In this document: positions 10,942 to 42,174 of the stretch, piece by piece
Numbering within the stretch: the stretch's first letter is position 1
Layout: every line of letters starts with the position of its first letter
Assembly: GCA_947462335.1 (NCBI GenBank)
Contig: OX381705.1
Span: 43,724,175-43,788,174 of the forward strand
DNA length: 64,000 nucleotides
Source of the DNA: Harmothoe impar
Lineage: Eukaryota; Annelida; Polychaeta; Phyllodocida; Polynoidae
Direction of reading: 5' to 3'
Program-made: the position numbers and the translations under genes
Notes under the pieces: model-generated
The model's database searches: none
What the model was told of the DNA's origin: nothing
Seen by the model: only the letters and a program-made list of their open reading frames with translations

Positions 10942-11977
10942 TACCCGATTTTGTCATCAGATCGGAGCTATTCTCACAAATCTGACCCAAACAGATGTGA
11001 ATACAAGCAAATATAAACAAACCCTAACATTTGAGCATCCATGTTACCATGATCTGGCAGATTTACTTTCGTGAGAATGGACCAGATAATCGGTTAGTGG
11101 AGCCCTAGCTATATTTGCAGCGCAATACCATACAAATTTAGTTTTGTTTGCGTCAATGCTGGCTTTCCCTTCGACATTCCCATGGATAATAATAATTGTG
11201 AGAAACACATTTTAGGCCACTCTTTTTTTATTCTTTGGTTACGGGCCCGCCGCACTACCATTAAGACCTACGCTCTAAAAATAATATTGTGAATCTCCAA
11301 TTATATTGCTATATGTCATTTTTACGGCGTGTAAATCGGACCATTATTAACGTTTTTAGACAAATCTTTATTCTTTTTTCTTTTCTTTTATTTCCTTCTC
11401 CGTACCTGAGAAAATTTTCATGGTGTCTGTAACCCAAAGAATAAAAAAAAGTGTGGCCTTATGGTGATAGTTCAATTTCAATAAATGAAAAAATAATTAC
11501 CCATGATACTTTGTAAAATGGGGTTTCATCTCAGCATCAAATTGTCCCTAAAGTCAAATACTAATTACACTCAGAGTCGGACACCAAAGAAGACATGAAC
11601 AGAGAAGCAAATATGTGTGCTTTCCATCTATTATGTTCATAAAAATGTTTGTGGATGATAAATTAATAGTATTCAGTATTAGTGACAATCTGCCCACTGA
11701 CAGGAGAATGAAAATCGGTACAACATGTATCTTTCCATGACTGTCCTTCCTCTTAACATGTCATATGACTTCGGTAATTGTAACCCATATTGTTCCCATA
11801 TGAAGTCCATCGTTGAGTTGACTTTTATGCCATTCTCATATGCTATAATTGTTCAAAGATTTTGCACAAACAATTGAATACACCTACTAGATCCAATGAC
11901 AGGACAAAGTGTCCGACTCTAAGATCACTTTTAGCATGAAGTGTCCGACTTTAGGATCAGTTGGATTGTTTGAGATC

Positions 11978-13396
11978 AGTAGTATAGTATGTATCGGAAC
12001 GGGACTATAGTTAACTACTGTTTATTACTCAATCGACCTGCAGCCAATCAGAGGCCTCCATTTGGTCACGTGACCGGAAGTGACCTACTTAGGGGATTAG
12101 TGGTGACGTCACGTGACCTAGTTAGCCAATCAGAGGCCGCCATTTGGTCACGTGACCGGAAGTGACGTCATCCCAGTAAACACCCTACGTAGTTCGAACG
12201 TAGCTCAGAGGTTTCTCTAGGTAGTTTTCCAACCAACAGGTTTGAGATTGGTAATTTTGGAAGGTTTGTAGACGTCAAAACGTTAAGGTTTATTTACGTT
12301 CAACAGACGTAGACGTCTCATTTACGTTTATCTACCTCATTCAGACGTAAATATACGTAATAAATCTACGTAGATCTACGTTAATGGACGTAACTTTTCA
12401 ACCAAAGTGGGTAGATGACTTCTCAATTTCACACAAGGTGGCAGCACTATCAATTATGGAGAGAATGTTGCAGCTCTTTAACAAATCTACCACATTCAAG
12501 CAGTAAATTCGCATTAATTATGAATTCAATATCATGCAAATAAACTGTATTCAATAGAATATTTATATATAAAGGAGAGTAGATTAAAGTATTGGGCGTG
12601 AATATGTGTTTTGTGGCACCTTTACTGAGCAGACACCACATTTGTGGTAACAGAAGAAATACAAAGCCTTTCTGCAGCCCAAACTAGTCAACAGATCTAT
12701 ACTGTGAGGCTGTTCAGTTGAACTAAAAGAATATACTTTATAGAATGAAATGACATTATAGTGGTTATTTTGTATGAATATTGTTTGTTAATGTAAATTT
12801 GTCTGCAATATAAGACAATCCTTTCTCTGAATCCCACTATGTAGAATTATATGTAATGTGTTTAAATCCCAGTTGAACGTAGATTTACGTCTGAGCTACG
12901 TAAATCAGACCTGTAGGTTTGAGAGTGGTAAATAAACCTTAACGTTTCAACGTTCATAAACCTTCTAAAATTACGTAGTTCAGACCAAAAATCAACGTAG
13001 ATTTACGTCTGACCAACGTAGTTGTGTTTACTGGGATATGACCTACTTATGGACCGGAAGTGACGTCATATGACCTACTTAGGGGACCGGAAGTGACATC
13101 ATATGACCTAATTTAGGATCACGTGACCGGAAGTGACCTGATGAGTCACGTGACCGGAAGTGACGTCACATGACCTAATGGCCAACCGGAAGTGAGTGAC
13201 CTCATTGAGGATCACGTGACCGGAAGTGACCTGATTGATCACGTGACCGGAAGAAGAAGAAGAAGAAGTTTTTTGTTTAGGAAGTGAGGGTCTTTAGGAT
13301 CACGTGACTGGAAGCGACGTCGTCACATGAGTGACGCTTTAAGAGACTGCGCGACTTACTAGTAAAAGAAGACGTATGAAAATAAAAACACAACAA
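11978..13396. repeat. Left terminal inverted repeat of the Polinton-type element
   Basis: Without the MITE at 12172-13035 this arm is about 555 bp. It matches the right arm from 22654 inward to 21248, where the match ends next to the death-domain stop codon. It contains repeated CACGTGAC, ACCGGAAGTGAC and TGACGTCA words, two CCAATCAGAGG words and one GCCGCCATTTGG. Its inner end holds AATAAA-type signals on the minus strand for the polymerase gene. Confidence 0.8.
12172..13035. mobile_element. ACGT-rich MITE with CCCAGTAAACAC ends, copy 1
   Basis: The termini CCCAGTAAACAC and GTGTTTACTGGG are perfect inverses. The target duplication is the dinucleotide AT (12170-12171 and 13036-13037). This is proven by comparison with the uninterrupted right inverted repeat of the Polinton-type element. 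Both ends are packed with ACGT-containing words such as GACGTAAAT and CTACGTAGAT. A second copy is at 24911-30328. Confidence 0.85.
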
Positions 13397-13498
13397 TAAT
13401 TTATTTTATTTTTTTATTTCTTTTTTTTCAATCTTGATAAACACTCTATTTTTGAAAAGATGCACTCAATCAAGCAATAACACGCTTATTATTTTTTT

Positions 13499-16400
13499 TC
13501 ATATCTCTAAAGGACTCGTTGTCACACCGTCAGAATGCACGCGACGCTTATAATACAAGTAGCGCACGCCGTCTTTCTCTATGGTGTAGGTGACCATTTT
13601 GTTTCGCACCACTTTGAAATTTCTATTTACAGCAATGAGAGTTTTTCGTTGGCGAAGAACATCCAAGAAGTCGTCTGGTTCCTTAGGGTTTTGTTTCTTC
13701 TGTACGCCTTTTGCACTCCATTTTTTGGATTTTCTTTCACCGGTGTCGCTGACTCGATCGTAGCAAATGTAAGTCTTAGGGTTGAGACTTAGGATCCCGT
13801 CACCTTCCCACTCCGCTTTCATAAGCCCCGAAGTTCTCAGATCGTGAAGGTACCGTCTCTCACAACATCCGCCGGGCGGCGGACACCATTCTCGCACTCT
13901 TTCCGTTTTTGTCTTCACGAAAAGCTCTAAGTGATCGTCGCACACCGCTGTCGGAAGCCACTTTCGTTTCTCTCTGAAGTACGTCTCTCTCAGGCGAGGT
14001 TTGACTAGGTCATCCAACGTGTCACCGCTGAGAGCCATGTAAAGACTATCGGTGTCCATTTGACAAAGGGCATAATCGCGCCGATCGACGAATCTATCCA
14101 AGAAGTCGTATGTGAACTCTAACATTTTCAACTTCGCGTACTGGTATACCATGAACCCTATTTGAATAGGGAGGTTGTTCTTGACTGTTTTCGGTTGTAG
14201 TTCGACTTCAAACAGATCGGAACTCAACTCGGACGCCTTTTTGAAGCGCCACGAATTGGCCAATAGTTCGAACTTCCGACTGTCAGTGTATCTCACCGCC
14301 GTGTGTTTTTCTTTGTTGCAGATTGTTTTACCGTACGTAGCGTTTCCCATTAACTTGTAACAGTCTCACAGAATTTTCTCGTTCTCGTTCACGTCGCCAC
14401 GTCTTCGCGCCGCCGTTACTTCGTCCGCGAAACCGGCAAAGGAGCGTTTAGGTAGGTATTCTACGACCAGCTGCACTTTGGTGACTATCAAACCGTGCTC
14501 TAAATACCACTTGAGAAGCGGCGTTCCCAAGAGAATATTTTTTCCGTGGTAACTCCCTATCAGACATCTCTGAGGCGTGTTCAACAGCTTTTCTTCCTGC
14601 GCAAAGTCTGACATGTGAGGTCCTATGTCCGATTTTGAAACGGTCACGTTCTTGAAAACGGGGGTCATTTCTTCGAAGTAGTCTCGTAGGTGAGGCGGCG
14701 TAGTGATGTCCACTTGAACTAAACCGAACATTTTCTCCTCTTTCACAGCGGAAAGGATGTCGCTCTCGCTCATCGCGTTTCGAGACACTTTCAAAGCGTC
14801 AACCTTCCAGCGTTGTTGGGAGACCTTAACCCGCTCATCTCGACGCTTCATCTCTCTCCATTCGCACTCCCACACGACGACCAGCTTGTGACCTAGCGCT
14901 TTCAAGTAAGCGCTTACTCTAGTTGTTCTGTCGCGTCTCTCCTCCCTCAGTGAAGCACACTGATATCGGTGCGACGGTATGCACTCGTGAGCGTGGAACC
15001 AACACCCGTGAAACTGGAAAACCGTATTAGAGGCCGCGTGAAACCCGTCCACGCGAATTCTCCGACAGCCTACAACCATCTCGCCGCCGTTCAAAGCGTG
15101 GCGCAGTTTCACGTCGCGGTCGTGCTCTACGAAGCGTAACCACTCCAAAGCGCTGTGAGAGTTTCTTTGCCTAATTTCGGGCTTGAACTCGGTCTCAGGT
15201 CGTCTCACCGCGTAATAGCCCGTGCAGTGCGCTTCGCTCATGCAGCGCAAGTACAGAGAGTTAGCGTCTAGTCCTAGGATGTGTTGGCACGGTCTCGCTT
15301 CTTCGCCGTACTTGTGCTCCCTTATCCGCGTGGTGCCCTTCTCGTGAAATCTATGGAAGATGATGGAAGGACCGCCGACTAGATTTTCTTTGATCAGAGC
15401 GTGGAGGACGGCGTCGAACTGGGGGAACGTTGTGAACGCGTCTTCTAGGTTTTGGAAGAGGAACCGTAAAGTCAAACCGGCGAGAGAAACTCCGTCTTTC
15501 AACATGTCAATGCCGCGATCTTGGAAAAATTTAGCGTGATTTTTCAGAGCTTCTATGAAAGGTTTGACGTCTTTGTTGTTGTAGTGGATCAAGTAATCTT
15601 CCATAGTTTGCATCTTCTCGTCGGACCAAACTTTCTGACATGCGGCGTAGTCGGATTCGGACATTTTGACGCCCGTCAGTTCGCTGTCAAAAGCCGATCT
15701 CGGTGGCAGCGTTCTGTTTGCCAGTTTCCTGGTAGACGTCATCCATTCGTAAGGAAAGTGACCTTTCTCTTCGTTCCTGGTGAAAGCTCGCAAATAGGTC
15801 GCGTAGTTGTAACCGGGTGCCAAATAGTTGACTACGTCCAAGAAACCGTGTGCTGTGTGTAAACCGCCAAGTATTGATTGCTTCTCTTTATGACGCTGAA
15901 TTCTTGGTTTCTTCGGTCTCCGGAGGCAAAGAACGAGTGAAGGCGTATTTTGATCAGGTTCAAGTGGTAACGCCCCGAGTTGAAGCCCACGACTGGAGCT
16001 TGACGGATGTATCTCAGAAGACGCTTCTTCAGTTGAACTAACGGGTGTCTGGTCTGAGCCGCAGCGAAGCCGCCTGGAGAAGGGGTGAATGTCGCCTCCT
16101 CCAGCAGGAGAGCTTCACCTATCGCCGCATCTAACTTCGCTAACGTCGGTCGGTAAAGTTCTAGCACAGCTTCCCCGATGACTTTGGCGTTCTCATTTAT
16201 GTGATTTAAAACTCGGTCCAACAAGGGGTCGGAATCTGCGTCGGATTCTCTGACGAAGCAGACGGGCCCCTCCCACCCCGGAAAGTTGGATGCGACGCTA
16301 GCCGACAAAGGGACGTGATCCCACAGCAGGGACACGTGTTCCGTCGACGGTTCTCTGCACGGTCTGAAGAAAGCTTCGAAATCGCGATCTTGTAAGGGTA

Positions 16401-17618
16401 GATTCCGGAATGTCCGTCGGGGGGAAAAATGGAGAAGTCTGCTAGCGCTTCGAAAATCGTTCTCGAATTTTGGTAGATGCCACCTACGTAGCGCAACTTG
16501 ACTTGTCGGCAAGAGGAAAGCTGGTTCCTGTGTCTCTTCAGCAAGAACTCGGTGGTGAACGCCGCCTTACACTTGCAACATTCGTATATGCCCGCGTACG
16601 CGTTGAAGTCTGTGACGAGAGAGACGTGCAAACCGCCTTTCGCCGTCAGGTGTAGGTTGACTTTACCTCGGGCGGCCAGAGTTCTGGAAGGCGGTCTGAT
16701 CAGAGTAACGCGTCTTCTCAACTTCCGCCCCGGCACTTGACGCGACGCGGTGTAAACCGCTATTTGTACGTCAAACAAGTTCTCTAACGCGGGTAAGTCG
16801 CGGATGTTCAGACCCGGAAAGGATTCAGGTGTGGCAGCGGGACAGAACTGACGTAACAAATCTGAAGTGCGCTTGCTGGTGTTGTATAAGTGAAAGGAAA
16901 TGCAGCGGAAGATGCAGAGGTTGTCCTTGTTGGGAAAATCTAACACGCCGCTTCTCTTTCCAACTCGACCGGCCTGAGTGATCCTACCGCCTATGGGGAA
17001 TTCCCCCGGTCCCATGTAAACGCAAATGTTCAAATTGGTAGGAAAAAGAACGTGCCACTTGGTGTCAGCGTCGCAAAGTTTCCGTACTTCCTCGCAAGCG
17101 ACGGTGTTTTCCATCTTTGAGAGGAGCTCTTCCAAAGTTTCTGAATTAGTTATAGTAGGGAGCGGTTGTATGAGAGTTGCGTTGTTCTGGGAGGCGTGAA
17201 AGTAGCGCAGTTTGCTCGTGTCTTCTCTGTGTTGTAAGAGTAAGCCTACCGAGAAACCCACTTTGTATCTGAATCTTTGTGTCAAGTGAATGCGACGCAT
17301 AGTATCTACAGCGTCACTCAACTCGCCGGTTGGTAGCCTGAAGTTTGTTACACTCACGCGAGTCCCGTGCATCCTGACGCCCGTTTGTATCGCAGGCCAA
17401 TTCGCCGTGAACGTTTCCTCCCCGTTCGGTACAGCACATATGCGCGGAGGGATGGTCACCCCGTCCAGAGATTCGCGTCGACAGGCGATCTTTCGGCAAT
17501 CGCCTTCGCCGCATAGAGGGCAAAACTTAGGTATTACTCTACAACTTTCTACGTGTCTCTCGTGGTTGTACGGTTTTTTAAAAATTTTGAAACACTTTTC
17601 GCATACGTACTGCGTCAT
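13499..17618 (-). pseudogene. Decayed Polinton/adintovirus-type DNA polymerase B (protein-primed family)
   Basis: The minus-strand gene would make about 1,370 residues. In order: a C2H2 zinc finger at the N-terminus; an OTU-like segment with Asp-Asn-Leu-Cys-x-Phe-Arg-Cys (about residue 230); a second C2H2 finger (about 350); the 3'-5' exonuclease region; polymerase motif A (Asp-Ala-Asn-Ser-Leu-Tyr, near 15270); a Phe-His-Gly-Cys-Trp-Phe-His endonuclease-like insertion common in this family (near 15000); motif B (Lys-Leu-Met-Gly-Asn-x-x-Tyr-Gly, near 14345); motif C (Asp-Thr-Asp-Ser, near 14055); and the family-typical C-terminus. Breaks: a frameshift near 16390 at exonuclease motif I, a frameshift near 15855, and an in-frame TGA at 14366-14368 just before motif B. 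It would replicate the linear element from its inverted repeats. The lesions show this copy is inactive. Confidence 0.9.
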
Positions 17619-17645
17619 GTTTTTTCACTCAGTTACCAACTACTT

Positions 17646-17765
17646 AGCCGTCTAACTATCTATCTATCTATCTATCAATCTATCTGTCTATCTATCTATC
17701 AATCTATCTGTCTATCTATCTATCTATCTGTCTGCTGTCTGTGTATCCGTCTGTCTGTCTCATAC
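17646..17765. repeat. (TATC/TGTC)n microsatellite
   Basis: Interrupted tetranucleotide repeats of TATC, AATC and TGTC lie upstream of the polymerase start. There is no other content between the polymerase and the next gene. Confidence 0.9.
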
Positions 17766-17880
17766 AGCGTACGTCAAACGCTGTGTGTGTGCGCGCGTGA
17801 GCGTTGAGCGTCTCTCATTCCGAATCTATACCGAGATATTTGAGAATAATCTCTGTTTTGTCATCCAACTCTTTGAGCGC

Positions 17881-19217
17881 TCAGGCGGACAGCGTCACCC
17901 CCTGCTGTGTGGGTTTTTTGTCAGGACCTTCGTACTTGCGCACGTGGACGAGGTTCTTACCGCTGTAGTAGCTCACAGCTGCGTACACTTCGCCCTCCTC
18001 ATCCAGCACTGCGAACCAGGGGGTGTGATTAGGTCTTCCTTGCGCGGCCGCTGTGTCGCGTATGCGCACCACTGCGCGGATATCGGCGATGCGTGCTATT
18101 AGCTCACGCAGCGCGTCGGCAGTGAAGTGCACTCGCTTGCTTCTGGTCAGAGACGCCTCTTTCACCTGGCCGTCTTTTGTGTAGCGCGGCCTCCTAGACA
18201 GTCTAGCCACGTCCTCCCAGATCTCCAGCGTCAAAGCTCCGTCTAAGCAGAACTCTAACCCGAGAAGACGGGAGAAGGTTTTCTCTGCATCTTCTCGTCC
18301 ATCTCGTTCTTTTTCTTGTATTTTTCTCTTCTTAGTAGGCCTTGTTGTTCTGGAACTCACCTTAGAACGTTTCAGACCCGCAAGAAGAGTAACACCATCA
18401 GCGTGAGCTGAATCAGCAGCAGAACCGATAGCAGGAGCAGCGTCAGCGCTGGTGGTATCCGAGACCTCGTTGTTGGAACAGAGCAGCCACACGCCGTCGG
18501 TGCTGAGTGTAGCGGTAGAAGATGAAGCGCCGCCGCCCTCGTAAGGTGGCGGTGAGGGCAGTCGCCACGGACCGGACGCGCTACCAGTGGAAGTGAGGTC
18601 GAAAGGTCGAAGAGGGGAGCCGAAAAACGTACCGCCCACCCCTTTCCCTTCGGGTTCTTCGTACGCCTCGTCGTCAGCGTCGTTCTCTGTCTCACCCTGT
18701 TGCTGCTGCTCCTCCTCCTCCTCTTCTTCTCGGTTTAGGGGCTGAGTGTCCGAATAGCTGTAACTCTCAGCGCGAGCGGCGTCGAGGGCGTCGGTCGATG
18801 TAGTGGTGGAGGAGAGGGGCTGTGCAACGTGCGGCAGGTCATCAAAGTCATCAACAGTAGTGGGGAGGTAAAAACCCGGTTGCCAGTACTGCGCTGCGCC
18901 AGGAGCATTGTCGTCGGTAGTAGTAGCGGTAGCAGCAGGTGCAGCAGAAGCAGCAGCAGCAGCAGACGCAACAGTAGCAGGCGCAGCAGCCTCAGCAGGC
19001 GCAGCCGTAGCAGGCGCAGCGGTAGCAGGTGCAGCAGCAGCAGCCGCAGCAGCCGCAGCACGAGGATCACCAGCAGCGGCAGCAGCAGCAGCAGCAGGCG
19101 GGGCGGCAGTAGCAGCGGCAGCGCGCTTAGCAGCAACGTGTACCGTCGCGAGTGTAACAACGTCGCTAGCACGACGACTACTACCAGTAGTACTACTACC
19201 ACTACTACTACTACTAG

Positions 19218-19251
<34 letters not shown>

Positions 19252-19425
19252 GCTGTGAGCGCTCGCTACAGCGGGAGGGTGATAAGACCAAGCGGCTGCG
19301 GCGGTAGTCTCATTTTCAGTAGCAAGAGGAGGCACTGACGCTAAACGAGCGCTGTTCCGCGTAGTCTTCTTGTTCTTGAACTTGCTTAGATCCTTTGACG
19401 GCGCTAGGTGTTGTCTTTTGCTCAT
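17881..19425 (-). CDS. Acidic/alanine-rich protein with PC4-like C-terminal domain
   Basis: An intact minus-strand ORF. I choose the Met at 19425 because it sits in a strong CCACCATGA context, whereas the upstream Met at 19449 would be only a few bases from the start site predicted by the TATATAAG at 19484-19491. The protein has about 514 residues. The first 330 are low complexity: serine runs, long alanine runs encoded by GCN repeats, then a Glu/Gln run. A basic nuclear-localisation-like stretch (Pro-Thr-Lys-Lys-Arg-Lys) follows. The last 45 residues contain a Leu-Val-His-Val-Arg-Lys-Tyr strand and Lys-Lys-Pro-Thr-Gln-Gln-Gly-Val-Thr-Leu-Ser, matching the single-strand-DNA-binding fold of transcription coactivator PC4/p15, though it stops before the final helix. 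A plausible job is single-strand DNA binding during replication, or transcription control. Confidence 0.7.
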
Positions 19426-19449
19426 GGTGGTGACTGTAGAGAGCAGCAA

Positions 19450-20441
19450 AAGAATGAGTGAGTGAATGGAGGTTTCCAGGCCCCTTATATACGCCTTCTC
19501 GCTTCTAGAGCTAAGCTACTTACTGCCCCTGTTCAGCTGCCGCCAGCTGGCCGGCGGCCATTCACAAAGAGAAACAAAAGACATAAGGCATGGCGTTTTC
19601 AGCTGGATCCCTTTCCCCCCTTTTGAGAGATCGACTGTCATGAGCTAAGCCACTTACCACCCTGTTCAGCAATTCAACGCGCATTAGCTGTATAAAGGAT
19701 TAAGCGGTTGCTGCCGCCGACTGACCAGCAGCCATTCACAAAGAGAAACAAAAGACATAAGGTATGACGTTTTCAGCTGGATCCCTTTCCCCTCTTTTTT
19801 GAGGGATCCACTGTCATGAGCTAAGCTACTTACCACCCTGTTCAGCAATTCAACGCGCGTTAGCTGTATAAAGGATTAACGGTGATGAGCTTAGAGTGTG
19901 TATACAAAAAAAAAACTACAGGAGGCGTGTGGCGTGAAGCAGGACCCCCTAAGACGAACGTGTCTGTCTGTGAGTAGAGGCGTGTGCATGTGGTGAGCGA
20001 CTTAAGTGTAAGACAAAAAAAAAAATCACCACCTCCTGCCGTGGTGAGTAGACCGGGCCGGCCGGCGGCGGCCGGCTAGTTCAATAGGGAGGGGTGACAG
20101 CTGACTAAGGCTGTGCATGAAAAAATCTGATTTTCACCTGACCTCTGACGTTTGTTACAATGAATGTCAGAGGGAGGGAGACGTCCTCAGGTAGGGGGTA
20201 GGAGGTAAGGCTATGGATGAGGAAAAAACACCGTTTTCAGCTGGTCTCCACGGATAGCGATGACATACCCCTCGTCATCTAAGCTCTTAAGGAGCGGAGC
20301 GGCTGAAAAAGCGTCATGCGGACAGGTCGCTAGACAGCTGGAGTGCTGTTGGAAATAGGATTAAACTCCCTCTGTATAAAAGCTCTGATTTCTGTTGGAA
20401 AAAAACCATATCGCCTCTGACCACAGTAACGTCTACTACCA

Positions 20442-20495
<54 letters not shown>

Positions 20496-20507
20496 AGACG
20501 AGACGAG
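19450..20507. promoter_or_regulatory. Divergent promoter region between PC4-like and death-domain genes
   Basis: Contains a 176-bp tandem duplication (CTGTCATGAGCTAAGC recurs at 19635 and 19811, with a partial third copy from about 19508). TATA boxes: minus strand 19484-19491 for the PC4-like gene; plus strand 19691-19697, 19867-19873 and 20375-20381 (TATAAAA). The last, 127 bp before the ATG, best fits the death-domain gene. A (CCG)n/(CCA)n tract at 20430-20495 sits in the leader. TTTTCAGCTGG words recur. Confidence 0.6.
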
Positions 20508-21248
20508 ATGGCTCAAGCTATTCCACTTTCAAGCTCGCCTTCACCGCCTTGTCCACCTGAAAAAAAGTTAATGCGGCTTGACGACGTGAGACGCGCGAGG
20601 CAGACCGATGGGGAGAACAGAGAGGTAGGACAGCGGCGCTTAGCATATAGGGACGCCTTGCTTCGTCAACTAGGTAAAGAGTTGAGCGGATCTTGGAGAG
20701 AGTTGGGCAGTAGCTTAAAAGTTACCGCCGCCCGTATGGATGCTCTAGTAGAGCGCAGTGTCAAGACACCGGAGGAGCTGTGTACGGCGATGTTCCGAGT
20801 CTGGTGGGGTGAAACCCCGCATCGTCATAGATGGGGAGAGCTCGGTCGCGTCTTCACCCGCATTAGACGCGTGGAAATGTTGGCTCAGTGGATGTCCCTT
20901 CTCCACAGACAGGGGTTGGATTTCGAAAACCCCGACCCGCGCGCGATGCATAAGCACTTGGGCACCCTCGGCAGACGTCTAGGTAGCAGGTGGAAAGAGG
21001 TGGGGGACCATTTAAAATTGTCGCCTGAGAGGTTAGATAAGATCGCTGAAGAATGCGAATACGGAGGAAGTCCCGCTGAGTGGGCCTTCCGAGTGTTGAA
21101 AATGTGGCAAGATGAAGCTGACGGTGCCGGCGGTACGCCTTTTGAACTCCTTCGAGTGTTGACTGAGGACATGGGAAAGTTTGACCTCGGCATCGCGATA
21201 TTACTTGACTTTATCAAGCAAGAAACAACGAGAACGACGGACATGTGA
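20508..21248 (+). CDS. Tandem death-domain protein of the Polinton-type element
   Basis: An intact 246-residue ORF with an ATGG start. Two homologous six-helix blocks at residues about 50-133 and 149-236 each follow the death-domain pattern: Leu-Gly-x-x-Leu-x-x-x-Trp-(Arg/Lys)-(Glu)-(Leu/Val)-Gly-x-x-Leu-Lys-(Val/Leu) with Trp63 and Trp162, then a Met/Leu-Asp-x-(Leu/Ile) helix, a Phe-Arg-Val-(Trp/Leu) segment and a final amphipathic helix. Residues 1-45 are Pro/Ser-rich then basic. There is no enzyme domain, signal peptide or membrane segment. Death domains bind each other in apoptotic and innate immune complexes (FADD, MyD88, RAIDD types). A two-domain protein without an effector could act as a decoy, as tandem death-effector proteins of herpes- and poxviruses do; that role is inference. 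Its open frame contrasts with the broken polymerase beside it. Confidence 0.8.
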   Translation: MAQAIPLSSSPSPPCPPEKKLMRLDDVRRARQTDGENREVGQRRLAYRDALLRQLGKELSGSWRELGSSLKVTAARMDALVERSVKTPEELCTAMFRVWWGETPHRHRWGELGRVFTRIRRVEMLAQWMSLLHRQGLDFENPDPRAMHKHLGTLGRRLGSRWKEVGDHLKLSPERLDKIAEECEYGGSPAEWAFRVLKMWQDEADGAGGTPFELLRVLTEDMGKFDLGIAILLDFIKQETTRTTDM

Positions 21249-21396
21249 ATTGTTGTGTTTTATTTTCATACGTCTTCTTTATTAGTAAGTAAAAAAAAAT
21301 ATTATAACAATTAAGACGCGTGTCCTCTTAAAGTGTCACTTCCTCCAGTCGCAGCTGATCGCCTCATCGAGGCACGTGATAAACAAAAAAAAATGA

Positions 21397-21438
21397 AGAG
21401 ACACGCTTCTTCCTCTCGAGAGGAAGAAGCGTGTCTCT
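21397..21438. repeat. 42-bp perfect palindrome
   Basis: Centre at CTC|GAG (21417/21418). The arm AGAGACACGCTTCTTCCTCTC is matched base for base on the other side with no loop. The sequence can extrude a cruciform or fold to a hairpin. Confidence 0.95.
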
Positions 21439-21948
21439 CGATTGAAATCTTTTCTTTTCTTTTTTTCTTAAAAAGAGACAAACGCCCCTTAGAGTGCCCC
21501 CCCACCCCCCTAGAGTGCCCCCCTCCCCCCTCCCCCCCCCCCCCCCACCCGCCCCATGCATCCTAAAAGCGCCCCCCTCCCCATGCATCTTAAAGGGGCC
21601 CCCCTCCCCCCCTCCCCTCCCCCCCTCCCCTCCCCCCCTCCCCTCCCCTCCCCTCCCCTCCCCTCCCCTCCCCTCCCCTCCCCTCCCCTCCCCCCCTTAT
21701 ACACTCTAAAGAACGCTTCTACCTAGTTCAATAAGTCACTTCCAGTCGCTCGTAAAACAATAAAAATGAAAAAAACAAAACTTATATCGTAGTGTTTTTT
21801 ATTAGTTTACCGAAAAAAATAAGAGACTCGCCTCCTCCTCCTTCTCCTCCTCCTCTCCTTCTCCTCCTCCTCCTCCTCCTCCTCCTCCTCCTCCTCCTCC
21901 TCCAAAAAAAAAAAAAAATATCACATTTTAAAGCGCGTGACCCCTTAA

Positions 21949-22149
21949 CCCTTTAAGGCCGACCAAAAAAAAAGTTTGCTGGTGAAGGGGCCGGGAGATT
22001 TTCATAGGAACCCTGCCAGGGCCGAGCCTTTGCTGATTCCCATAGAGTTATGATGACTATAGTCGATGCTCGGCCAGCCATGGCATCGACTATAGTCGAT
22101 GCTCGGCCAGCCATGGCATCGACTATAGTCGATGCTCGGCCCTAAAGGG
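21949..22149. mobile_element. piggyBac-like MITE with internal 33-bp tandem repeat
   Basis: Flanked by TTAA at 21945-21948 and 22150-22153, with inverted termini CCCTTTAAGGCC and GGCCCTAAAGGG. A TTAA target and CCC...GGG ends are typical of piggyBac elements. The right half has three 33-bp units containing the palindrome ATCGACTATAGTCGAT. It inserted into the Polinton-type right arm. Confidence 0.7.
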
Positions 22150-22187
22150 TTAAAGACGCTCATCTCTTCATTAAGTCGCGTGACGTC

Positions 22188-22218
<31 letters not shown>

Positions 22219-22245
22219 CTTCTTCTTCTTCTTCTTCTTCTTCTT

Positions 22246-22654
22246 CCGGTCACGTGATCAATCAGGTCACTTCCGGTCACGTGATCCTCAATGAGGTCGC
22301 TCACTTCCGGTTGGCCATTAGGTCATGTGACGTCACTTCCGGTCACGTGACTCATCAGGTCACTTCCGGTCACGTGATCCTAAATTAGGTCATATGACGT
22401 CACTTCCGGTCCCCTAAGTAGGTCATATGACGTCACTTCCGGTCCATAAGTAGGTCATATGACATCACGTGACCAAATGGCGGCCTCTGATTGGCTAACT
22501 AGGTCACGTGACGTCACCACTAATCCCCTAAGTAGGTCACTAAGTAGGTCACTTCCGGTCACGTGACCAAATGGAGGCCTCTGATTGGCTGCATGTCGAT
22601 TGAGTAATAAACAGTAGTTAACCATAGTCCCGTTCCGATACATACTATACTACT
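22246..22654. promoter_or_regulatory. Dense array of E-box/ETS/CRE/YY1/CCAAT motifs in the right inverted repeat
   Basis: In about 410 bp I count eight CTTCCGG (ETS), seven CACGTGA (E-box, USF/MITF type), four TGACGTCA (CRE), one AAATGGCGGCC (YY1) and two ATTGGCT (inverted CCAAT). They are often fused into composites such as GGTCACGTGACGTCA. The left arm carries the matching array. Motif identities follow known vertebrate consensus sites; binding here is inferred. Confidence 0.7.
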
Positions 22655-23083
22655 GAGATCAACATGTTAGATGTAGATTTATTCCTACTTAAATTACGAG
22701 ATTTAATGCAATTCCTTCAGGGATATAAGCTGACAGATATCGAGAGTGCTATGGTGTACCTAATATTCAAATTGGTTTCCTTTGAATAGGTAAATTTCAT
22801 CAACCAAAAACGGTCACTTATTCATGATCCAGGGGTGTCCGAAATGGGTGCCTTTACCCTATCCGAAATCATTTTATATCGATTTACAAAGTTATTCAGA
22901 ATGATTGTAGGCATTATGGTGATAAATACCTAAAGAGCAGTTGATCGATAACACCTTGCCAAAATGCTCACAACTCAAACATGTTTAGACCTAGGCATGC
23001 ATGTTTAAAATCTAAACACATATTTTTGCCGTGTATGCACATGCACCTTCTCCAACTAATGGCCACACTCTATCTGCCCTCAG

Positions 23084-23324
23084 GTTAGTTGAGACGGAGC
23101 GACTGCTGCGGCCCTTATTCCTGGGTTTGTCCTCACAGCCGGGTGTGGCCCCAACCCGCCTGAGGCTCCTGGACAAGGACAAGTTGCGGCAACATGGCAT
23201 GCTGCTCATGGAGGCGCTCGGAGCAGCTGTGGAGAGCTTGGACGACTCGGAGTACCTCAGTAATATATTATATGGATTGGGTCAGACACATGCCAACTAT
23301 AATGTCACTGCTGATATGCTACCC
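23084..23324 (+). CDS. Globin X-like gene, coding exon 2 (heme pocket)
   Basis: Bounded by a CTGCCCTCAG acceptor and a GTAAGTGA donor. It supplies Phe CD1 (in Arg-Pro-Leu-Phe-Leu), the distal His E7 (Arg-Gln-His-Gly-Met) and the proximal His F8 (Gly-Gln-Thr-His-Ala-Asn-Tyr), so all heme-pocket residues are intact. It ends in phase 0 at the FG corner (Asp-Met-Leu-Pro) rather than at the classical G7.0 position. Intron 2 (8.1 kb) holds two MITEs and a LINE. Confidence 0.88.
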
Positions 23325-23609
23325 GTAAGTGACATTTGATTATACTATTAAATAAACATCCTGTATACAGCGGAAGTAACATGATACAAGCAATACCTGC
23401 ACGTCACATATCGTAGTGGATCTCAATATAATTATATGAATTGGTTATATCATTTATTGTGAGAATCGATGAGATAAGCGCGTAATGAAGATCCACCTTT
23501 ACAATCCTTCGAATGAGGTACATCCACATACAGTCTATTACTAGGCAGATACAGATGGTAAAAAAAATATTGTAAGGACAGGCGTCCAAATATAATACCA
23601 GTGCTACTA

Positions 23610-24851: not shown

Positions 24852-25208
24852 GTTCTGCTAGGTGACCACCCATTATATAATGTAAATGGGGGTATATATA
24901 AAGGAATCTTCCCAGTAAACACCCTACGTAATTCCAACGTTTTTCTCTAGGTGGTTTTCCAACCAAAGGTTTGAGATTGGTAAATTTGGAAGGTTTGTAG
25001 ACGTCAAAACATGAAGGTTTATTTATGTTCAACCGACGTAGATGTCTGATTTACGTTTATCTACCTCATTCAGACGTAAATCTATGTAACAAATCTACGT
25101 AGATCTACGTTAATCTACGTAATTTTTCAACTTCAATTGGTTATACAACTTCTCTGCTTCACACTAGGTGGCAGCACTTTTAACTGTGGAGAGAATATGA
25201 CAGCTCCC

Positions 25209-28200
25209 AGTCCGCAAATCCCCACTTCACGGCAAGCACATTCAACCAAGGCTACCCGGGCTCTGCTTTGCCCTATCCCTCGAAACCCAGATATTAAATC
25301 TAGTTTCAAAAGGGACTTTTTTATTTTTGCTTTGTTCACCATACACCCTTTACACAATGCCTGGAAGAAATTCACATAAGGAACTTCGTTTGGTATCTTG
25401 GAACTGCGAGTCTTTTAAACCCAGAGACAACGTAGGACACCGTAACTCGATAATTAAATATGCGGAGGAGAAGAAGATTGACGTTTTCTGCCTCCAAGAA
25501 ACCAGAATACTCAAAACTGCTAAGATCAATAGTATTCCTGGGTTTACTGCACACTACAACTTTAGGCCAGCGGGGAACATGCAAGGTCCTATGCTGGGCA
25601 CTGCTATATTGGTAAGAAACAGTATAAAATCAGAAAGAGTTGACTCCCCCAAGTCTAACTCAGAGACTGATATTATAACTGTCAAACTTACGCTAAAGCA
25701 CGACACTATACATGTCACCAATTTGTACCACAAGTGCCAATCGGATCCGGACAGAGTACCCAACTTGAAATCTATGGTTAGGAAATACCCGGAAAATCAC
25801 ATTATTGTCGGTGACTTCAACGTCCACCACTCTAATTGGGGTTTCTCTAACCGTGATACTCGAGCTGGTAAGAAACTATTAAGAGTACTCGACGATTGTG
25901 ATACCCTTGTTTTACTTAATGATGGCGGACCTACCCATACATCGGGCACCTCCATTGATTTAAGCTTTATCACAAACGACCTGATGATGGGCACAGATTG
26001 GGAGGTCATTGATGACCTAACATCTGACCATTACGCCTGCCTACTCACTATAGCAGCCGAAAAGGTCCCTCCATTTTCCAACATTCCCAGACTCAATATT
26101 AAGAAAACGGACTGGGAAGCTTTTAACAATAGTCTCTTTGAAATACTAGAGCCACTTCGAAGACCATCTTACGAGCAATACAGGGTTGCCATCTTTACAG
26201 CACTTACTGCCAACACCCCCAGGTTAAAGGCCCACATTAGGTCTAAGCGCTGGTGGTTTCAAAATGCTGCGTGCAAAGATGCTGCCAAGAGAAGAAACGC
26301 AGCCGCTCGTAAGATGAGATATAACAAAAATCAATTAAACAAGGATAGTCTAAGGATTAACCAGAAAATTGCTAAAAGAGTCTTCGCCATGCAAAAAAAC
26401 CAGGCATGGAAGGAGTGGATAGAAAGTATTAACAGAGACACTTCCACTAGAGACCTCTGGCGTAAGACCAAACAACTGAGGAATTCAACAATACCTGAAC
26501 CTCTTCACCCTGAACCGCTGGCAATGGCGACAGAGCTAGCAGAGATGTTTACTGACAGGACCGATCCTGACACTAACTTCTCTTTGGCTCAAATCAGGGC
26601 TATGGAAGGAGAGAGGATTGCGAGAGAGAATTATATTGAAGAAGCATGCACTCTACCAAACATGTTCGAACTTGATGGGGACTTCACCCTTTGCGAGCTA
26701 AATCGCCACATCGCAAAGACCCCCAATAAGGCTCCAGGTTCTGACAGAATCCCGGTAGCTGTGCTAAAAAACCTGGACGAACGAAACAAAAGAGTCATGC
26801 TTCAGATTTTTAATGATATCTTTCACTCCTCCACCCTCCCTCTTGAATGGAAACAGGGACACATTGTTCCTTTTCCCAAACCCGGCCACCCCACTGCCAA
26901 AAGACCCATTACTCTACTACAGACCATGAGTAAATTGATGGAGAGAATGGTACGGGAGAGATTGGTATACAGTATGGAATCCAGGCGCATTCCTACGGCT
27001 ATACCACCCTCTCCAAACCAATATGGCTTCAGAAGATTCATGTCTGCACAACAATGCTACTCAGCAAAGCTTGATCTGGTTCACCAGGCCAAGAGTGCCG
27101 GGAGAAAATGCGTTGTTGTGTACCTGGACCTCGAAAAAGCTTTCGAGTTAGTTGACCACGTCGTTGTCCTACACTCGTTAGCCAAAAGAGGTGCCAGGGG
27201 AAAACTTCTAAGCTTTATACAAAATTACCTTACTGGACGCTCTGTGAGAGTAGGCTTTCAGGGAACTCTCTCTGACTATTTGCCACTTCACGGTGGCGTT
27301 CCCCAAGGGGCAGTCCTATCCCCCACAATCTTCGGTCATGTCGGAACTTCATGAAATTGATATTCCACATACCAAAATCCTTTCATTTGCGGACGACGTA
27401 GCGTTGGTCATAACGGCTAACGACGACATCGTTCAGAAAACCCAGAACGCTTTAAACCTGGTTTACACTTGTTGCAATCACTTGGGACTTAAAATCTCAA
27501 TGGCAAAAACCAAGGCCATGGTGTATGACAAGCAACCCATTAACAACCCACTGTCCATCGCAGGGCAAGAAGTAGCATGGACTCGTTCTTTTAAACACCT
27601 AGGGGTAATATTTGATAGTCAATTGACCTTTACCCCCGAAATAGAGTACTTAAATAAGAGAATGAGAGACAGGTTAAACGTCATGCGGTCCATATCAGCC
27701 CCCACTTGGGGTATATCTAGAGCTAACCTGATGCTATTCTATACCCAAGCAATCAGGTCCATCGTCGACTATGCGGCCCCTGCTCTATTCACTCAGAGTA
27801 GGCACGCCCATTCCAGAGACGAAGATATCTCCAGAAGAATCAAAGCTATGTCAAAACTGGAGGGGATTCAAACCTCTGCAATAAGGATTGCCCTCGGAGC
27901 ATCCAGGTACACAAAGATTACCTGCATGCAAAGAGAGGCCGATCTACCTTCAGTAATTGACAGGGTTGATTACTTGGGCCAATCCTTTCTTCTTACGGCA
28001 GGCTCCGGTCTGCGGTCGGACTTTGGATTGGCCGTAAGGGATCACATGATGAAAAGAGTAGACGAGCAACACCAACCTACCACTAGTTTATCCAGGAGAT
28101 ATAGAGTGCTATGCAGCACCACGCTTGATGCTGCTGGCACTCTATTTGAATCACCCTGCATGATACTGCAACACCCATTCTACGAGGTGCACGCTTCCTT

Positions 28201-29751
28201 TCATGTGGAGAACCACTTTAAGAAGAGTGAAACCTCGCCTATTGTTCTTAAAAACCAATCATTAGCGGAAATAGAGGCACTATCCACCTCCTTCCCTGAT
28301 GCAAAACATATATACACAGACGGTAGTGTCAATCCCATTACTGGATTATGTGGCTCTGCGGCTGTATGTTTTGAAGATACTATATACATGACTAGAGTAT
28401 CAGACAACTCAACCAGCATGGCCACCGAGTTACATGCTATTAAAACGGCACTGGAGAAATGGTCAAATGACAATTTGGTCATCCATACTGATTCCCTAAG
28501 CTCCATCCATTCTATTAGGGACACCCAAACTCCTCACAGAATGGCTCGGGTCATACAACAAATGATCAACAGGAGATCCACAGCTCAGCACACTACTGCC
28601 ATTCATTGGATACCATCCCATGTTGGCATTAGAGGCAATGAAATGGCAGACGAGGCAGCTAAGGCTGCTTCTGCCATAAACCAAGACAGACCGGTCTATG
28701 GGTTAATATCTGGAGGGCAAGCAAAAACCACACTAAAACATGCACTTGCCCTCAGAATGATAGCGACCAGACAAGAAAGAGACCGGGTGGATAGAGTCAA
28801 AAATCCAACTTCTCAATCTAGAAAGTGGTTGGATTTTCTACTTCCACAGATGCCAAGGGTTTCACCCACCCTTCCCAGGTACATCCAACACGCCTTAACT
28901 CGACTTAGGCTTGATTATAGGAGAAAGGAGGACATCCCCCATAGGTCCCTTTGCTCCTGTACCTGGGAAAATTTCTCTGCGGTCCACATCCTTACGGGTT
29001 GTACGGACATGGATTACTCCGCCTTCCTCGAGATGGGAACTATCCAATCTGACACACCAATAACCTCGGAGGAGGAAATGGCTGTGCTCATCTTGAGGAC
29101 GGCGGAGAAATTCCACTACAAACCCTTGGCCAAATTCCTTAGGGACAACCGCCACTACATGTACTAGATGCCTACATCCCTCACAAAACTAATTTGTGGG
29201 CAGTTGTGGGCACATAGTACCCTAAATAGAAATGGCACCCGCCATACACTCTCACCTTTCACCCTTGAAAGGTCCTCTCCCTTGAGGTACTCCACTTTTT
29301 ATTATCCATGCGGAAAGATTTCCGCATAGATACAAAACCATACTAGGCAAAAACCTAGTCCCCTTTGAAAAGGGCTACACTCTATATGCATTCCATACAG
29401 AGACACATAATAGCTACTTGGTTCAACCAGGGATTTCAACCTTATTATTCTCCTGGCTATGCCAGAAGAACTTCACCCTCATTAGGAGGTCAAACAAGGA
29501 TCACGGTGGATTCCGGTAGGGAACTGCGCCTTTTCCCTTTTTCCTTTTTCCCTTACTATTGCAGACATGTTGACTTTTGACGAGCGATACAACGATGCGG
29601 CATCATTATTTCATCAGATCGATCTCTCTCATTGAACTCATTTCATCACAACCTCGCACTCCGCTCATCCATTGGCGTGGCTATTCCCGGGTCTTGAATG
29701 CCTGTCACCACCTTCGGTGGCTTCAAAAGATATTGTATCGTATCGTATCGT
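25209..29751 (+). mobile_element. Near-full-length LINE with endonuclease, RT and RNase H (I/Ingi-like)
   Basis: The 5' boundary lies after AGCTCC (25203-25208) and the 3' boundary before AGCTCC (29752-29757), a 6-bp target duplication inside the MITE. The 3' end has a TATCG pentamer tail (four units or so) rather than poly(A), as in some I/Ingi/Vingi-type LINEs. About 150 bp of leader precedes the ORF. No ORF1 is visible. Confidence 0.8.
25357..29167 (+). pseudogene. LINE polyprotein: APE endonuclease, reverse transcriptase, RNase H, with one frameshift
   Basis: Starts at Met in CACAATGCCTGG. The N-terminal 230 residues are an APE-type endonuclease (Ser-Trp-Asn-Cys; Gln-Glu-Thr; Gly-Asp-Phe-Asn-Val-His; Ser-Asp-His). 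The reverse transcriptase follows (Tyr-Leu-Asp-Leu-Glu-Lys-Ala-Phe; Gly-Val-Pro-Gln-Gly-Ala-Val-Leu-Ser-Pro; Phe-Ala-Asp-Asp). Near the C-terminus is RNase H (Tyr-Thr-Asp-Gly-Ser; a Glu in Ala-Thr-Glu-Leu; His-Thr-Asp-Ser; Asp in Glu-Met-Ala-Asp-Glu-Ala). A frameshift at about 27333, between Pro-Gln-Gly and the catalytic Ala-Asp-Asp, splits it into 25357-27354 and a second frame ending at 29167. The rest is open, so the copy is young. Confidence 0.88.
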
Positions 29752-30389
29752 AGCTCCTTAACGAATCTACCACATTCAAGCAGTAATTTCTTATTAATTT
29801 TGAATTAAATGTTATGCAAATGAACCATATACAATTTGATAATTATATATGATGGATAGCAGGTTAAAGAATAATTATGCATTGATATTCACATTACAGC
29901 ACTTTACTGGGTAGACACCACATTGGTGGTAATGGAAGAAATACAAAGCCTCTCTGCAGCCAAAACTATGCAATAGATCTATACTGTCAGGCTGTTCAGT
30001 TAAACTACAAAGATGTACTATATTTATATAGAAAGAAATGTGATTAAGAATGATAGTAGTTAGTTTGTATAAATATTTTTTGTTAATGTGAATTTGTCTG
30101 AGATATATTTGTCTGAATCCCACTATATAACAGTGTGTAATATCATATTAATGTGTTCACAAAGTTGGACGTAGATTCATGTCTGAGCTACGTAAATCAG
30201 ACCTGCAGGTTTGAGATTGGTAAATAAAACCTTAACGTTCTAACGTTGATAAACCTTCCAAAATTACGTAGTTCAGACCAAAAAACAACGTTAATTTACG
30301 TCTGACTAACGTAATTGTGTTTACTGGGTTGAGGCTAGATAGTTTGGACCTGCTCCAAATATTAACTGCCCTAAGCGCACAGGAAGTGA

Positions 30390-40096: not shown

Positions 40097-41432
40097 ATGT
40101 CTAGTGGGAGAAGAGGAAACTTGAATAAGGTTGGCTGCGAGCTGGCACCGGATCCCAAACCACCGACAAAACATCAAAGCACCATGCCCGCCGCTGCTGT
40201 GGCCCCGGTCGACAAGTCAGTAGCAGACCAACTCAAATCTATTATGCTGAAGCTGGATGGCATACAAAAGACACAGGATACCCACAAAACGGATCTAGAG
40301 AGTCTATCCACTGACCTGGGGACCTACAAACAAGAGGTTCTATTGAAGGTGGCTGAAATAAAAGGTGAAATCTCTGACCACGTGGCGGGCCTGACAAGGA
40401 GAATAACACGTCAAGAGGCCCAGATTAAGGCCCCTCGGTGCACGCGTAATGGAACTAGAAAATGATAAGCGTAGGAAAAATCTAGTAATCGATGGGATTC
40501 CTGAAAATGATAACACCAACATAAGAGATCAATTGAATGAGCTCTGGAAAGATCTACAGGTTTCTTTCAACTCTGACGACACTGAAGCCTGCTATAGAAT
40601 GGGTGTTAGGCGGGACGATATGGCCAGACCACGTCCCATCATGATAAGACTACAGTCCATACGTCACAAGCAGCAAGTGTATAGGAACATCAAGAAGCTG
40701 GGTGATAATCCCCAAAAGTGGCGAAATACATATATAAACGACGACATGACCCCTGCTGAGCTTAGGCTTAAAAGGGATTTGAGCTCGCTGGCGGGCTATG
40801 CGCGGCAGAATGGGAGACAAGACGTCAAGGTTTCAGGCCTATCTATTCATGTTGGAGCGCAGAAATATGGTAAAGACACTCTACACAAGCTTCCCATAGA
40901 TTGCAACATGGACAAGATAAAAATAGTAAGTGTTGAGGGTGGAGTCATCTTTCAGTCGGAGTACAGCTACCTGTCCAACATGTGCCCGTGCGTCATATCA
41001 TATGAGGGGGTTCAATACCCGTCTGCGGAGAGCCTATTTCAGGCGCAAAAGGCAAAGAAATGTGGACCTCCAGACCTGGCAGAGCAGTTTGCTGAGACAT
41101 ATGATCCCTTTGAAGTATTAGAAAGAGCAAAAAGCATAAAAGAGAACGAAGATTGGAAAAATTCCAAAGATGACATTATGCAACTGGTACAAGATGCAAA
41201 GTATGACCAACACCCGGCCTACGCAGATAGGCTTATTGCTATAAAAGGCAAAATTATTGAGGGATCGTATGACAGGTACTGGGGCTCAGGTAAACATGTC
41301 TCAAAGCATGCTACGATAGACATTAATAATCTGGAAGGAAGAAATAAATTAGGCTTGATCCTCCAGACGACGCGAGATAGGCTTATTGCAGACAGAACCG
41401 CGGCGGAAGGACTGGCGCCAAATGCGTTGTAA
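40097..41432 (+). pseudogene. LINE-type ORF1 protein fused to a NADAR (YbiA-like) domain, one frameshift
   Basis: Two overlapping frames (40097-40465 and 40449-41432) read as one protein with a 1-base shift near 40435. The first part is a heptad-rich coiled coil. The second begins in that coil (Met-Glu-Leu-Glu-Asn), then gives an L1-ORF1-type RNA-recognition fold (Lys-Asn-Leu-Val-Ile-Asp-Gly-Ile-Pro; Arg-Pro-Ile-Met-Ile-Arg-Leu) and a basic C-terminal domain up to residue about 150. Residues about 168-314 match NADAR: Leu-Ser-Asn (175-177), Pro-Ser-Ala-Glu-Ser-Leu-Phe-Gln-Ala-Gln-Lys (191-201) with the conserved Glu194, Trp-Lys-x-x-Lys-Asp-Asp (236-242), Ala-Lys-Tyr-x-Gln-His-Pro, Tyr-Trp-Gly-Ser-Gly (277-281) and Asn-Lys-Leu-Gly. 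Known NADAR enzymes remove ADP-ribose from guanine bases. The fusion and the residue match are visible; activity is inference. Confidence 0.75.
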
Positions 41433-41528
41433 GAATGATACATTAAAGCACATGGTCAGCCCGCACTCTGTCCTCTGATCTAACACGGACAAGACGTTTC
41501 AGCAAAAGCTCCCCCCTCAACCTATAGG

Positions 41529-42173: not shown

Positions 42174-42174
42174 C

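What the first reader, a model, noticed from the sequence alone, without database searches (positions are those of the whole stretch)
11978..22654. Capsid-less Polinton-type element with a host-signalling cargo gene
The ends (5'-AG, long inverted repeats, 6-bp duplication GAGATC) and the polymerase place it with Polintons/adintoviruses. The complete internal sequence nevertheless encodes only polymerase B, a PC4-like protein and a tandem death-domain protein. Integrase, capsids, ATPase and protease are absent rather than decayed, since the intergenic space is too small to hold them. This may be a distinct minimal lineage that is replicated by its own polymerase and integrated in trans.
Basis: partly seen in the sequence, partly recalled or inferred. 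Interest (0 to 1): 0.9.

Follow-up and report, generated by a model that had tools for sequence, protein, structure and literature searches.

The report
A Polinton split into two segments
The element read here carries a DNA-copying gene but no integrase or shell genes were found in it, while a second family with the same ends in the same genome carries integrase, packaging and shell-type genes but no DNA-copying gene was found in it, so the two likely work together as one virus-like mobile element split into two separately inserted pieces.

Summary
The element is real: 11978-22654, GAGATC on both sides, AGTAGT...ACTACT ends, pPolB, PC4-like and tandem death-domain (DD) genes, and no integrase, ATPase, capsid-type or protease gene found. 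This copy looks dead (pPolB: two frame changes and a stop; PC4: a stop; a MITE in the left repeat). The genome shows the missing half. Class R (this one): 9 of 10 copies read have pol, PC4 and DD genes, 0 of 10 any M gene; 9.2-9.7 kb. Class M: 3 of 3 copies read have ATPase, integrase, capsid-type and protease genes and no pol or DD; 10.5 kb. Both share the terminal tip and 6-bp duplications (R 8 of 8, M 11 of 12 with both tips). The tip occurs 13,991 times. In the first 5 Mb of one contig the MCP-type gene lies in 11 of 11 M-size and 0 of 28 R-size tip pairs. Best reading: a bipartite Polinton whose halves complement each other in trans (inferred, not observed; a rare complete element is not excluded). 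A third tip-bearing class was glimpsed.

The parts
11972..11977 (.). left target-site duplication GAGATC
   Evidence: sequence
11978..13268 (+). left terminal inverted repeat arm, tip AGTAGTATAG; interrupted by a later insertion
   Evidence: a 31-nt tip pattern occurs 13,991 times in the genome
12157..13035 (.). ~880-bp MITE (CCCAGTAAACA inverted repeats, AT duplication) inserted in the left arm
   Evidence: two partial further copies in the window at 80-85%
13354..13397 (+). 44-nt stretch downstream of the pol gene, repeated in inverse downstream of the DD gene
   Evidence: 93%
13499..17618 (-). protein-primed DNA polymerase gene (C2H2 finger, vOTU-like, exonuclease, Vsr-like insert, palm); broken in this copy by two frame changes (~16386, ~15850) and an in-frame stop (14366-14368)
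   Evidence: domain names partly read by eye; in the genome 60 of 87 scored relatives have frames of 1320 aa or more
17881..19425 (-). PC4-like (predicted ssDNA-binding) gene with low-complexity N-terminus; in-frame stop at 17881-17883, similarity to relatives runs on to 17818
   Evidence: Pfam matches below cut-off
19485..19491 (-). TATA-box-like motif for the leftward genes
   Evidence: motif match only
19508..19879 (.). tandem ~176-bp repeats in the central divergent promoter region; related blocks (75-81%) lie in M elements
20375..20381 (+). TATA-box-like motif for the DD gene
   Evidence: motif match only
20508..21248 (+). tandem death-domain protein gene, 246 aa, intact
   Evidence: (Pfam Death, 4.6e-08, two stretches); 150 of 150 scored genome copies without stops
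21249..21290 (-). inverse partner of 13354-13397
22228..22654 (-). right terminal inverted repeat arm, end ...ACTACT
22655..22660 (.). right target-site duplication GAGATC

Best explanation
The window holds one copy of what is likely the replication half (R) of a Polinton whose genes are split over two separately inserted elements with the same ends, R carrying polymerase, PC4-like and death-domain genes and M carrying ATPase, integrase, capsid-type and protease genes, and the two halves likely complement each other in trans. Shown: both classes occur in the same genome in high copy number, with the same terminal tip, 6-bp duplications and complementary gene sets in the copies read; most scored genes are intact. 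Inferred: R's protein-primed polymerase starts on the shared tips of both segments, the PC4-like protein coats the displaced strand, M's rve integrase inserts both through the shared AGTAGT ends, M's ATPase and capsid-type proteins package both, and the DD protein interferes with FADD/RIPK1-type death signalling of the host. The window copy itself looks dead and is a diverged member.
For: R: of 10 copies read, 9 have pol, PC4 and DD genes (pol interrupted in at least four of them), 0 of 10 any of ten M proteins (tblastn E 1e-4); both tips and a perfect 6-bp duplication in 8 of 8 copies in which both tips were found, 9,188-9,694 bp. M: 3 copies read through match ATPase, integrase, penton-type, MCP-type and protease and show no pol, PC4 or DD gene beyond a 26-nt low-complexity PC4 hit (frames of one copy, Pfam in 119); 12 of 13 copies probed have both tips, 11 of those 12 a perfect duplication, 10,459-10,521 bp. 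The 24-nt tip matched without mismatch except at one end each of two M copies; TIRs are 90% alike over ~130 bp and the promoter regions share blocks at 75-81%. 0 of 96 scored MCP genes lie within 20 kb of any of 150 scored DD or 87 scored pol genes, and 0 of 109 scored integrases within 15 kb, while 18 of 87 pol lie within 7 kb of a scored DD and 17 of 109 integrases within 7 kb of a scored MCP. First 41 tip pairs on contig C1: MCP 32-mer in 11 of 11 M-size, 0 of 28 R-size, 0 of 2 others. Open frames: 150 of 150 DD, 94 of 96 MCP and 109 of 109 integrases without stops, 60 of 87 pol frames of 1320 aa or more. A one-piece relative (L001) has pol followed by the M genes in the M order. Recent activity: CpG ratio 1.12 in the element against 0.52 in the flanks; ten R copies differ by median 0.27% in DD.
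Against: No replication, packaging or integration was observed; complementation is inferred. The scored gene lists are capped top lists, so a rare complete element (pol plus integrase) is not excluded, and the search for other integrase lineages with the L001 integrase did not complete. Only 3 M copies were read through; the rest rest on size, tips and one 32-mer. Of those 3, one had no left tip in the fetched piece and one had no matching duplication. R-size and M-size pairs are unequal (28 to 11) and R-size was not checked by gene except in one pair. The ten R copies were picked among equal top scores, so their low divergence is partly selection; seven top-scored MCP genes differ by median 2.4%, up to 4.0%. 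MCP and penton names come from gene order, size and similarity to L001; Pfam and PDB sequences (MCP only) did not confirm them. A third tip-bearing class without R or M genes in the windows read was seen.
Confidence: 0.74

Rival explanations
1. R and M are each satellites (deletion derivatives) of a complete, one-piece Polinton with the same tips that was not sampled and that supplies everything in trans.
For: Search lists are capped; a related complete gene set exists in another source (L001); one R copy (R7) shows that further deletion derivatives arise.
Against: No scored pol within 20 kb of 96 scored MCP genes or within 15 kb of 109 scored integrases; the MCP 32-mer lies only in the 11 M-size pairs of 41, which are too short for pol besides the M genes, and the two long pairs show neither gene set in the windows read; R and M have their own cargo and narrow sizes.
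Confidence: 0.12
2. A two-component transposon inside the cell: R and M complement each other for copying and insertion, but the capsid-type genes no longer make particles that leave the cell.
For: Very high copy number (13,991 tips) fits amplification within one germline.
Against: Capsid-type genes are kept open (94 of 96 scored MCP without stops), which suggests that they are still used; the scored list favours intact copies.
Confidence: 0.1
3. One reading: a minimal capsid-less lineage, independent, mobilised by unrelated Polintons in trans.
For: No integrase or capsid gene was found in R; capsid-less pPolB elements are known elsewhere (PMC11071308, section 11).
Against: The M family has the same tips, duplications and promoter blocks and, in the copies read, lacks just what R has.
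Confidence: 0.04

Closest known systems
Polintons/Mavericks of vertebrates (Barreat and Katzourakis 2021, PMC8097293; passages and section 7 read)
   Same: 5'-(AGT)2//(ACT)2 ends, 6-bp duplications, TIR length within the reported 46-1,447 bp, pPolB, and (in M) integrase, ATPase, capsid-type and protease genes
   Different: intact elements there are 12.7-24.6 kb with seven or eight conserved ORFs in one piece; here the genes are divided over elements of 9.2-9.7 kb and ~10.5 kb
Adintoviruses (definition in PMC11071296, passages read)
   Same: PolB with N-terminal OTU-like region (in R, by alignment with L001), rve integrase with C-terminal chromodomain (in M; chromo match below Pfam cut-off)
   Different: the defining genes lie on two separate elements; R has PC4-like and death-domain genes
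L001, contig QGON01000029.1 in a tubeworm-symbiont MAG (probably animal contamination; inferred)
   Same: pol collinear (26-42% identity) including the Vsr-like insert; ATPase, integrase, penton-type, MCP-type and protease in the M gene order
   Different: pol and M genes on one contig; no DD or PC4 match better than E 0.094, but the contig is incomplete and shows no TIR
Bidnaviruses (PMC11071296 passages; PMC11071308 section 9)
   Same: animal elements with Polinton-type pPolB and, in some, a segmented genome
   Different: bidnaviruses have parvovirus NS1 and capsid; no such Pfam match here
Transpovirons and cytoplasmic linear plasmids (PMC11071308 section 11; PMC3671162 passages)
   Same: polymerase-bearing elements that lost the structural module
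   Different: R copies are inserted in chromosomes with 6-bp duplications and have a matching partner element

Membership tests
Polinton/Maverick | terminal inverted repeats with AGT/ACT ends and 6-bp target duplication | tested here: met
   window; R 8 of 8 copies with both tips, M 11 of 12
Polinton/Maverick | protein-primed DNA polymerase B | tested here: met
   R only: DNA_pol_B_2 match (below Pfam cut-off), 491-aa piece at 39-46% to the 120 listed relatives, collinear with L001; not found in 3 of 3 M copies; protein priming itself not tested
Polinton/Maverick | rve integrase | tested here: not met
   not found in R; present in M (rve 3.2e-13)
Polinton/Maverick | capsid proteins, packaging ATPase and adenovirus-type protease | tested here: not met
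   not found in R; in M Adeno_IVa2 and Peptidase_C5 matches above cut-off, capsid-type proteins by order and similarity to L001 only
Adintovirus | PolB with OTU-like domain plus hexon plus rve integrase with chromodomain on one genome | tested here: not met
   split: OTU-like motif region aligned with L001 in R (Pfam gave no OTU match), integrase with weak chromo match in M; hexon fold not tested
Bidnavirus | parvovirus NS1 helicase and parvovirus capsid with pPolB | tested here: not met
   no such Pfam match in the R ORFs or ten M proteins
Transpoviron / cytoplasmic linear plasmid | pPolB element without structural genes, extrachromosomal | tested here: inconclusive
   no structural gene found in R; the copies with both tips are flanked by duplications; an extrachromosomal form was not tested
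Bipartite genome | two elements with shared ends and complementary, non-overlapping essential genes in one host | tested here: met
   in the copies and lists examined:
Bipartite genome | mutual dependence in replication, packaging or integration | not testable with these tools
   inferred from gene content only

The most novel reading that the evidence does not exclude
The first bipartite (possibly tripartite) Polinton: a virus-like element whose genome is split into a replication segment with its own death-domain effector and a morphogenesis-plus-integrase segment, both copied from and inserted through identical tips, present in thousands of insertions in one animal genome and recently active.
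Probability: 0.65. Interest if true: 0.95.

Novelty: new variant of a known kind. Interest (0 to 1): 0.93.

Why it matters
Polintons sit at the centre of a current scenario for the origin of eukaryotic dsDNA viruses (PMC11071308, section 11), and virus particles of Mavericks have not been observed (PMC8097293, start of abstract). Two mutually deficient halves kept at high copy number would be strong evidence that polymerase, integrase and packaging act in trans on any DNA with the right tips, and would show how segmented viruses can arise from a one-piece ancestor. It also gives a natural experiment: gene retention on M versus R tests which Polinton functions are selected. In the open-access library, polinton or adintovirus together with death domain gave 0 papers; polinton with multipartite gave 5, none with such a title or abstract start; a wider search on bipartite, segmented or multipartite gave 218, of which 20 were listed; in passages of PMC11071296 and PMC11071308 the segmented or bipartite Polinton-related viruses mentioned are bidnaviruses.

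Tried and rejected
IMG/VR was scanned eight times with pol pieces, the DD and PC4 alignments, a TIR motif, and L001 integrase and MCP: no relative. Structure predictions of the PC4 and DD proteins had mean pLDDT 44 and 43, too poor to use; no fold search was run. A tandem PC4 duplication was suspected, but hhalign gave only a 15-column match (probability 1.5%, E 0.033). A TIR-divergence age was dropped: arms differ by 6 of 411 in the window copy but by 30 mismatches in a 423-column match in R1, whose DD and pol pieces are nearly identical to other copies. L002 is a chimeric contig and was not used. The host was not identified. PDB search of the MCP-type protein found nothing convincing. A first MCP pairwise comparison mixed strands and was redone. 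In the pol pairwise comparison R5 and R7 were left out (broken, absent). Genome counts of the DD and pol 32-mers were asked for but not answered, nor was the genome search with the L001 integrase.
Full report
WHAT IS IN THE WINDOW. The element spans 11978-22654 with GAGATC on both sides and AGTAGT...ACTACT ends. The right arm is 22228-22654; the left arm matches it in two blocks, up to 12155 and 13036-13268, separated by an ~880-bp MITE with CCCAGTAAACA ends and an AT duplication; two partial further copies of that MITE lie in the right flank at 80-85%. Genes diverge from a central promoter region with 176-bp tandem repeats and TATA-like motifs at 19491 (minus) and 20375 (plus). Leftward: a PC4-like gene and the polymerase. 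Rightward: a 246-aa protein with two death-domain stretches (Pfam 4.6e-08). A 44-nt stretch downstream of pol recurs in inverse directly after the DD gene.

THE POLYMERASE. The middle piece matches 675 database proteins; the 120 listed have 39-46% identity, and the two listed with an organism in their name are from Actinia tenebrosa and Branchiostoma. Palm and exonuclease motifs were read by eye (recalled). A Vsr-like endonuclease stretch lies within the polymerase; its HGC..H...C and EC.W residues are invariant in the 12 aligned sequences (window and 11 relatives), and their profile matches PDB Vsr chains at E 1.7e-06. The N-terminal piece aligns with L001 and shares a DNLC.FRC and an H.S motif that I read as the vOTU catalytic pair described in PMC11071308 (section 9); Pfam gave no OTU match. 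In this copy pol is broken by two frame changes and one in-frame stop, and the PC4 frame by one in-frame stop; assembly errors are not excluded.

ABSENCE OF THE OTHER GENES. A genome-contig scan found L001, an 11.8-kb contig in a tubeworm-symbiont MAG, most likely animal contamination (inferred): pPolB, ATPase (Adeno_IVa2 above cut-off), rve+chromo integrase, adenain-like protease (Peptidase_C5, below cut-off) and capsid-type proteins named by order and size. Its nine non-pol proteins gave nothing in the window element better than E 0.022 (a low-complexity segment) over 323 six-frame segments, while its two pol pieces scored 1e-24 and 1.4e-135.

THE GENOME. The own-genome tool was mostly busy; six searches were answered. 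Assembly: 1.51 Gb, 736 contigs; the host was not identified (a globin-like exon, LINE-type frames and CpG depletion in the flanks suggest an animal, perhaps a vertebrate; inference). DD: 150 scored of 3,963 candidates, all full length, none with stops. MCP-type protein of L001: 96 scored of 2,685 candidates at 36-37%, 94 without stops. Pol: 87 scored of 5,882; 60 of 87 with open frames of 1320 aa or more. M integrase: 109 scored of 6,638, none with stops. Only the best candidates are scored, so these lists favour intact copies. Tip pattern (31 nt, one mismatch allowed): 6,983 + 7,008 matches, reversed control 0. MCP 32-mer (two mismatches allowed): 801 + 816 matches, control 0.

TWO CLASSES. 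Three MCP loci were read through (L019-L024). In all three, L001 proteins match ATPase, x126, x273, integrase, penton-type, x152, MCP-type and protease in that order, and no pol, PC4 or DD gene is found apart from a 26-nt low-complexity PC4 hit. Frames were listed for one of them: ATPase 239 aa, 110, 392, integrase 378, penton-type 372, 143 aa, the C-terminal part of the MCP-type gene, protease 150, a 99-aa frame, and an Ala-rich 211-aa frame at the left (Pfam). Their ends match the R tip and a central block resembles the R promoter region (75-81%). Ten DD loci were read through (L025-L044), picked by me among equal top scores on different contigs: nine have pol, PC4 and DD (pol interrupted in R3, R5, R6 and R10), one (R7) has no pol in the piece read, none matches any of ten M proteins. 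Tips: 8 of 10 R copies have both, with a perfect 6-bp duplication in 8 of 8, 9,188-9,694 bp; of the three M copies, one lacks the left tip in the fetched piece, one has both tips (one mismatch) but no matching duplication, one is perfect. Ten further M copies probed at both ends are all perfect, 10,459-10,521 bp. Linkage of the scored lists: MCP to DD or pol 0 of 96 within 20 kb (nearest pol 79 kb); integrase to DD or pol 0 of 109 within 15 kb (nearest pol 24 kb); pol to DD 18 of 87 within 7 kb; integrase to MCP 17 of 109 within 7 kb. The first 100 listed tips (contig C1) form 41 adjacent pairs, with 18 tips left over: 28 R-size, 11 M-size, 2 longer. The MCP 32-mer lies in 11 of 11 M-size, 0 of 28 R-size and 0 of 2 longer pairs; 4 of 15 MCP 32-mers in that stretch lie outside complete pairs. 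The R-size pairs were classed by size; one of them contains a scored DD gene, and one M-size pair a scored integrase.

THIRD CLASS. The two longer pairs (13.2 and 15.9 kb) share the windows near their ends at 98%, show no R or M protein in nine 1.5-kb windows, contain an Ala-rich frame, internal repeats and, in one, frames that I read by eye as retroelement (no Pfam call), and may be a further segment or a non-autonomous derivative.

AGE. DD genes of ten R copies differ by median 0.27% (max 0.68%), the middle pol piece of eight of them by 0.34% (max 0.95%; R5 and R7 left out); these copies were chosen among equal top scores, so the value is biased low. The window copy differs from them by 1.0-1.6%. 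Seven top-scored MCP genes differ by median 2.4%, max 4.0%. The CpG ratio has median 1.12 in 20 element windows and 0.52 in 103 flank windows (max 0.87). Much of the family looks young; the window copy is an older or divergent member.

MECHANISM (inferred). Each class lacks a function that the other has. R alone would not integrate or package, M alone would not prime its own copying. Shared tips are what pPolB initiation and rve insertion would recognise. The DD protein is weakly closest to FADD (first domain, E 0.0025); for the second domain RIPK1 reaches only E 0.036, behind a chain named GPX62 (E 0.0028), so a role in damping or rewiring host death signalling is a guess. DD relatives at 98, 76 and 55% and PC4 relatives at 96 and 75% exist on unnamed contigs, so the cargo is conserved in related elements.

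LITERATURE. Intact vertebrate Mavericks are 12.7-24.6 kb, in one piece, with (AGT)2//(ACT)2 as the most common end motif (PMC8097293, section 7). Capsid-less pPolB elements (linear plasmids, transpovirons) and segmented bidnaviruses are known (PMC11071308 section 11; PMC11071296 passages). Searches for a death domain with polinton or adintovirus gave 0 papers, for non-autonomous Polintons 0, for polinton with multipartite 5, for the wider set 218 with 20 listed. Apart from the four papers named by section or passage (PMC8097293, PMC11071308, PMC11071296, PMC3671162), papers were seen only as listings.

Noticed in passing
L065-L073 (G000 C1:3921638-3934882 and C1:4267525-4283450): A third class of element with the same tips, 98% alike in the windows near the ends, without any R or M gene in the nine windows read; holds an Ala-rich frame and retroelement-like frames (by eye).
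   Followed up: partly
L021:2197-2832 (minus): The M element carries a 211-aa Ala-rich frame with a Cys-rich C-terminus at the left end, without Pfam match; the third class has an Ala-rich frame at a similar place.
   Followed up: partly
window 14850-15060 (minus), within pol: A Vsr-like endonuclease stretch lies within this polymerase clade; a possible nicking role is untested.
   Followed up: partly
L037/L038, copy R7: An R copy with PC4, DD and the right tip but no pol in the 9.6-kb piece read: probably an internal deletion derivative.
   Followed up: partly
L033:1507-1770, next to copy R5: A diverged pol fragment (43% identity) outside the R5 element, probably a relic of another Polinton lineage.
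   Followed up: no
23031-23339: Globin-like exon 0.4 kb right of the element (Pfam Globin 2.1e-05).
   Followed up: partly
25327-29167 and 40449-45599: LINE-type retroelement frames (endonuclease, RT, RNase H), one next to a NADAR-domain frame.
   Followed up: no
12157-13035, 24907-25206, 29752-30328: MITE family with CCCAGTAAACA ends; the copy inside the element still has a CpG ratio near 1.
   Followed up: partly
L001: Probable animal Polinton contig filed in a bacterial MAG (contamination of a reference genome).
   Followed up: yes
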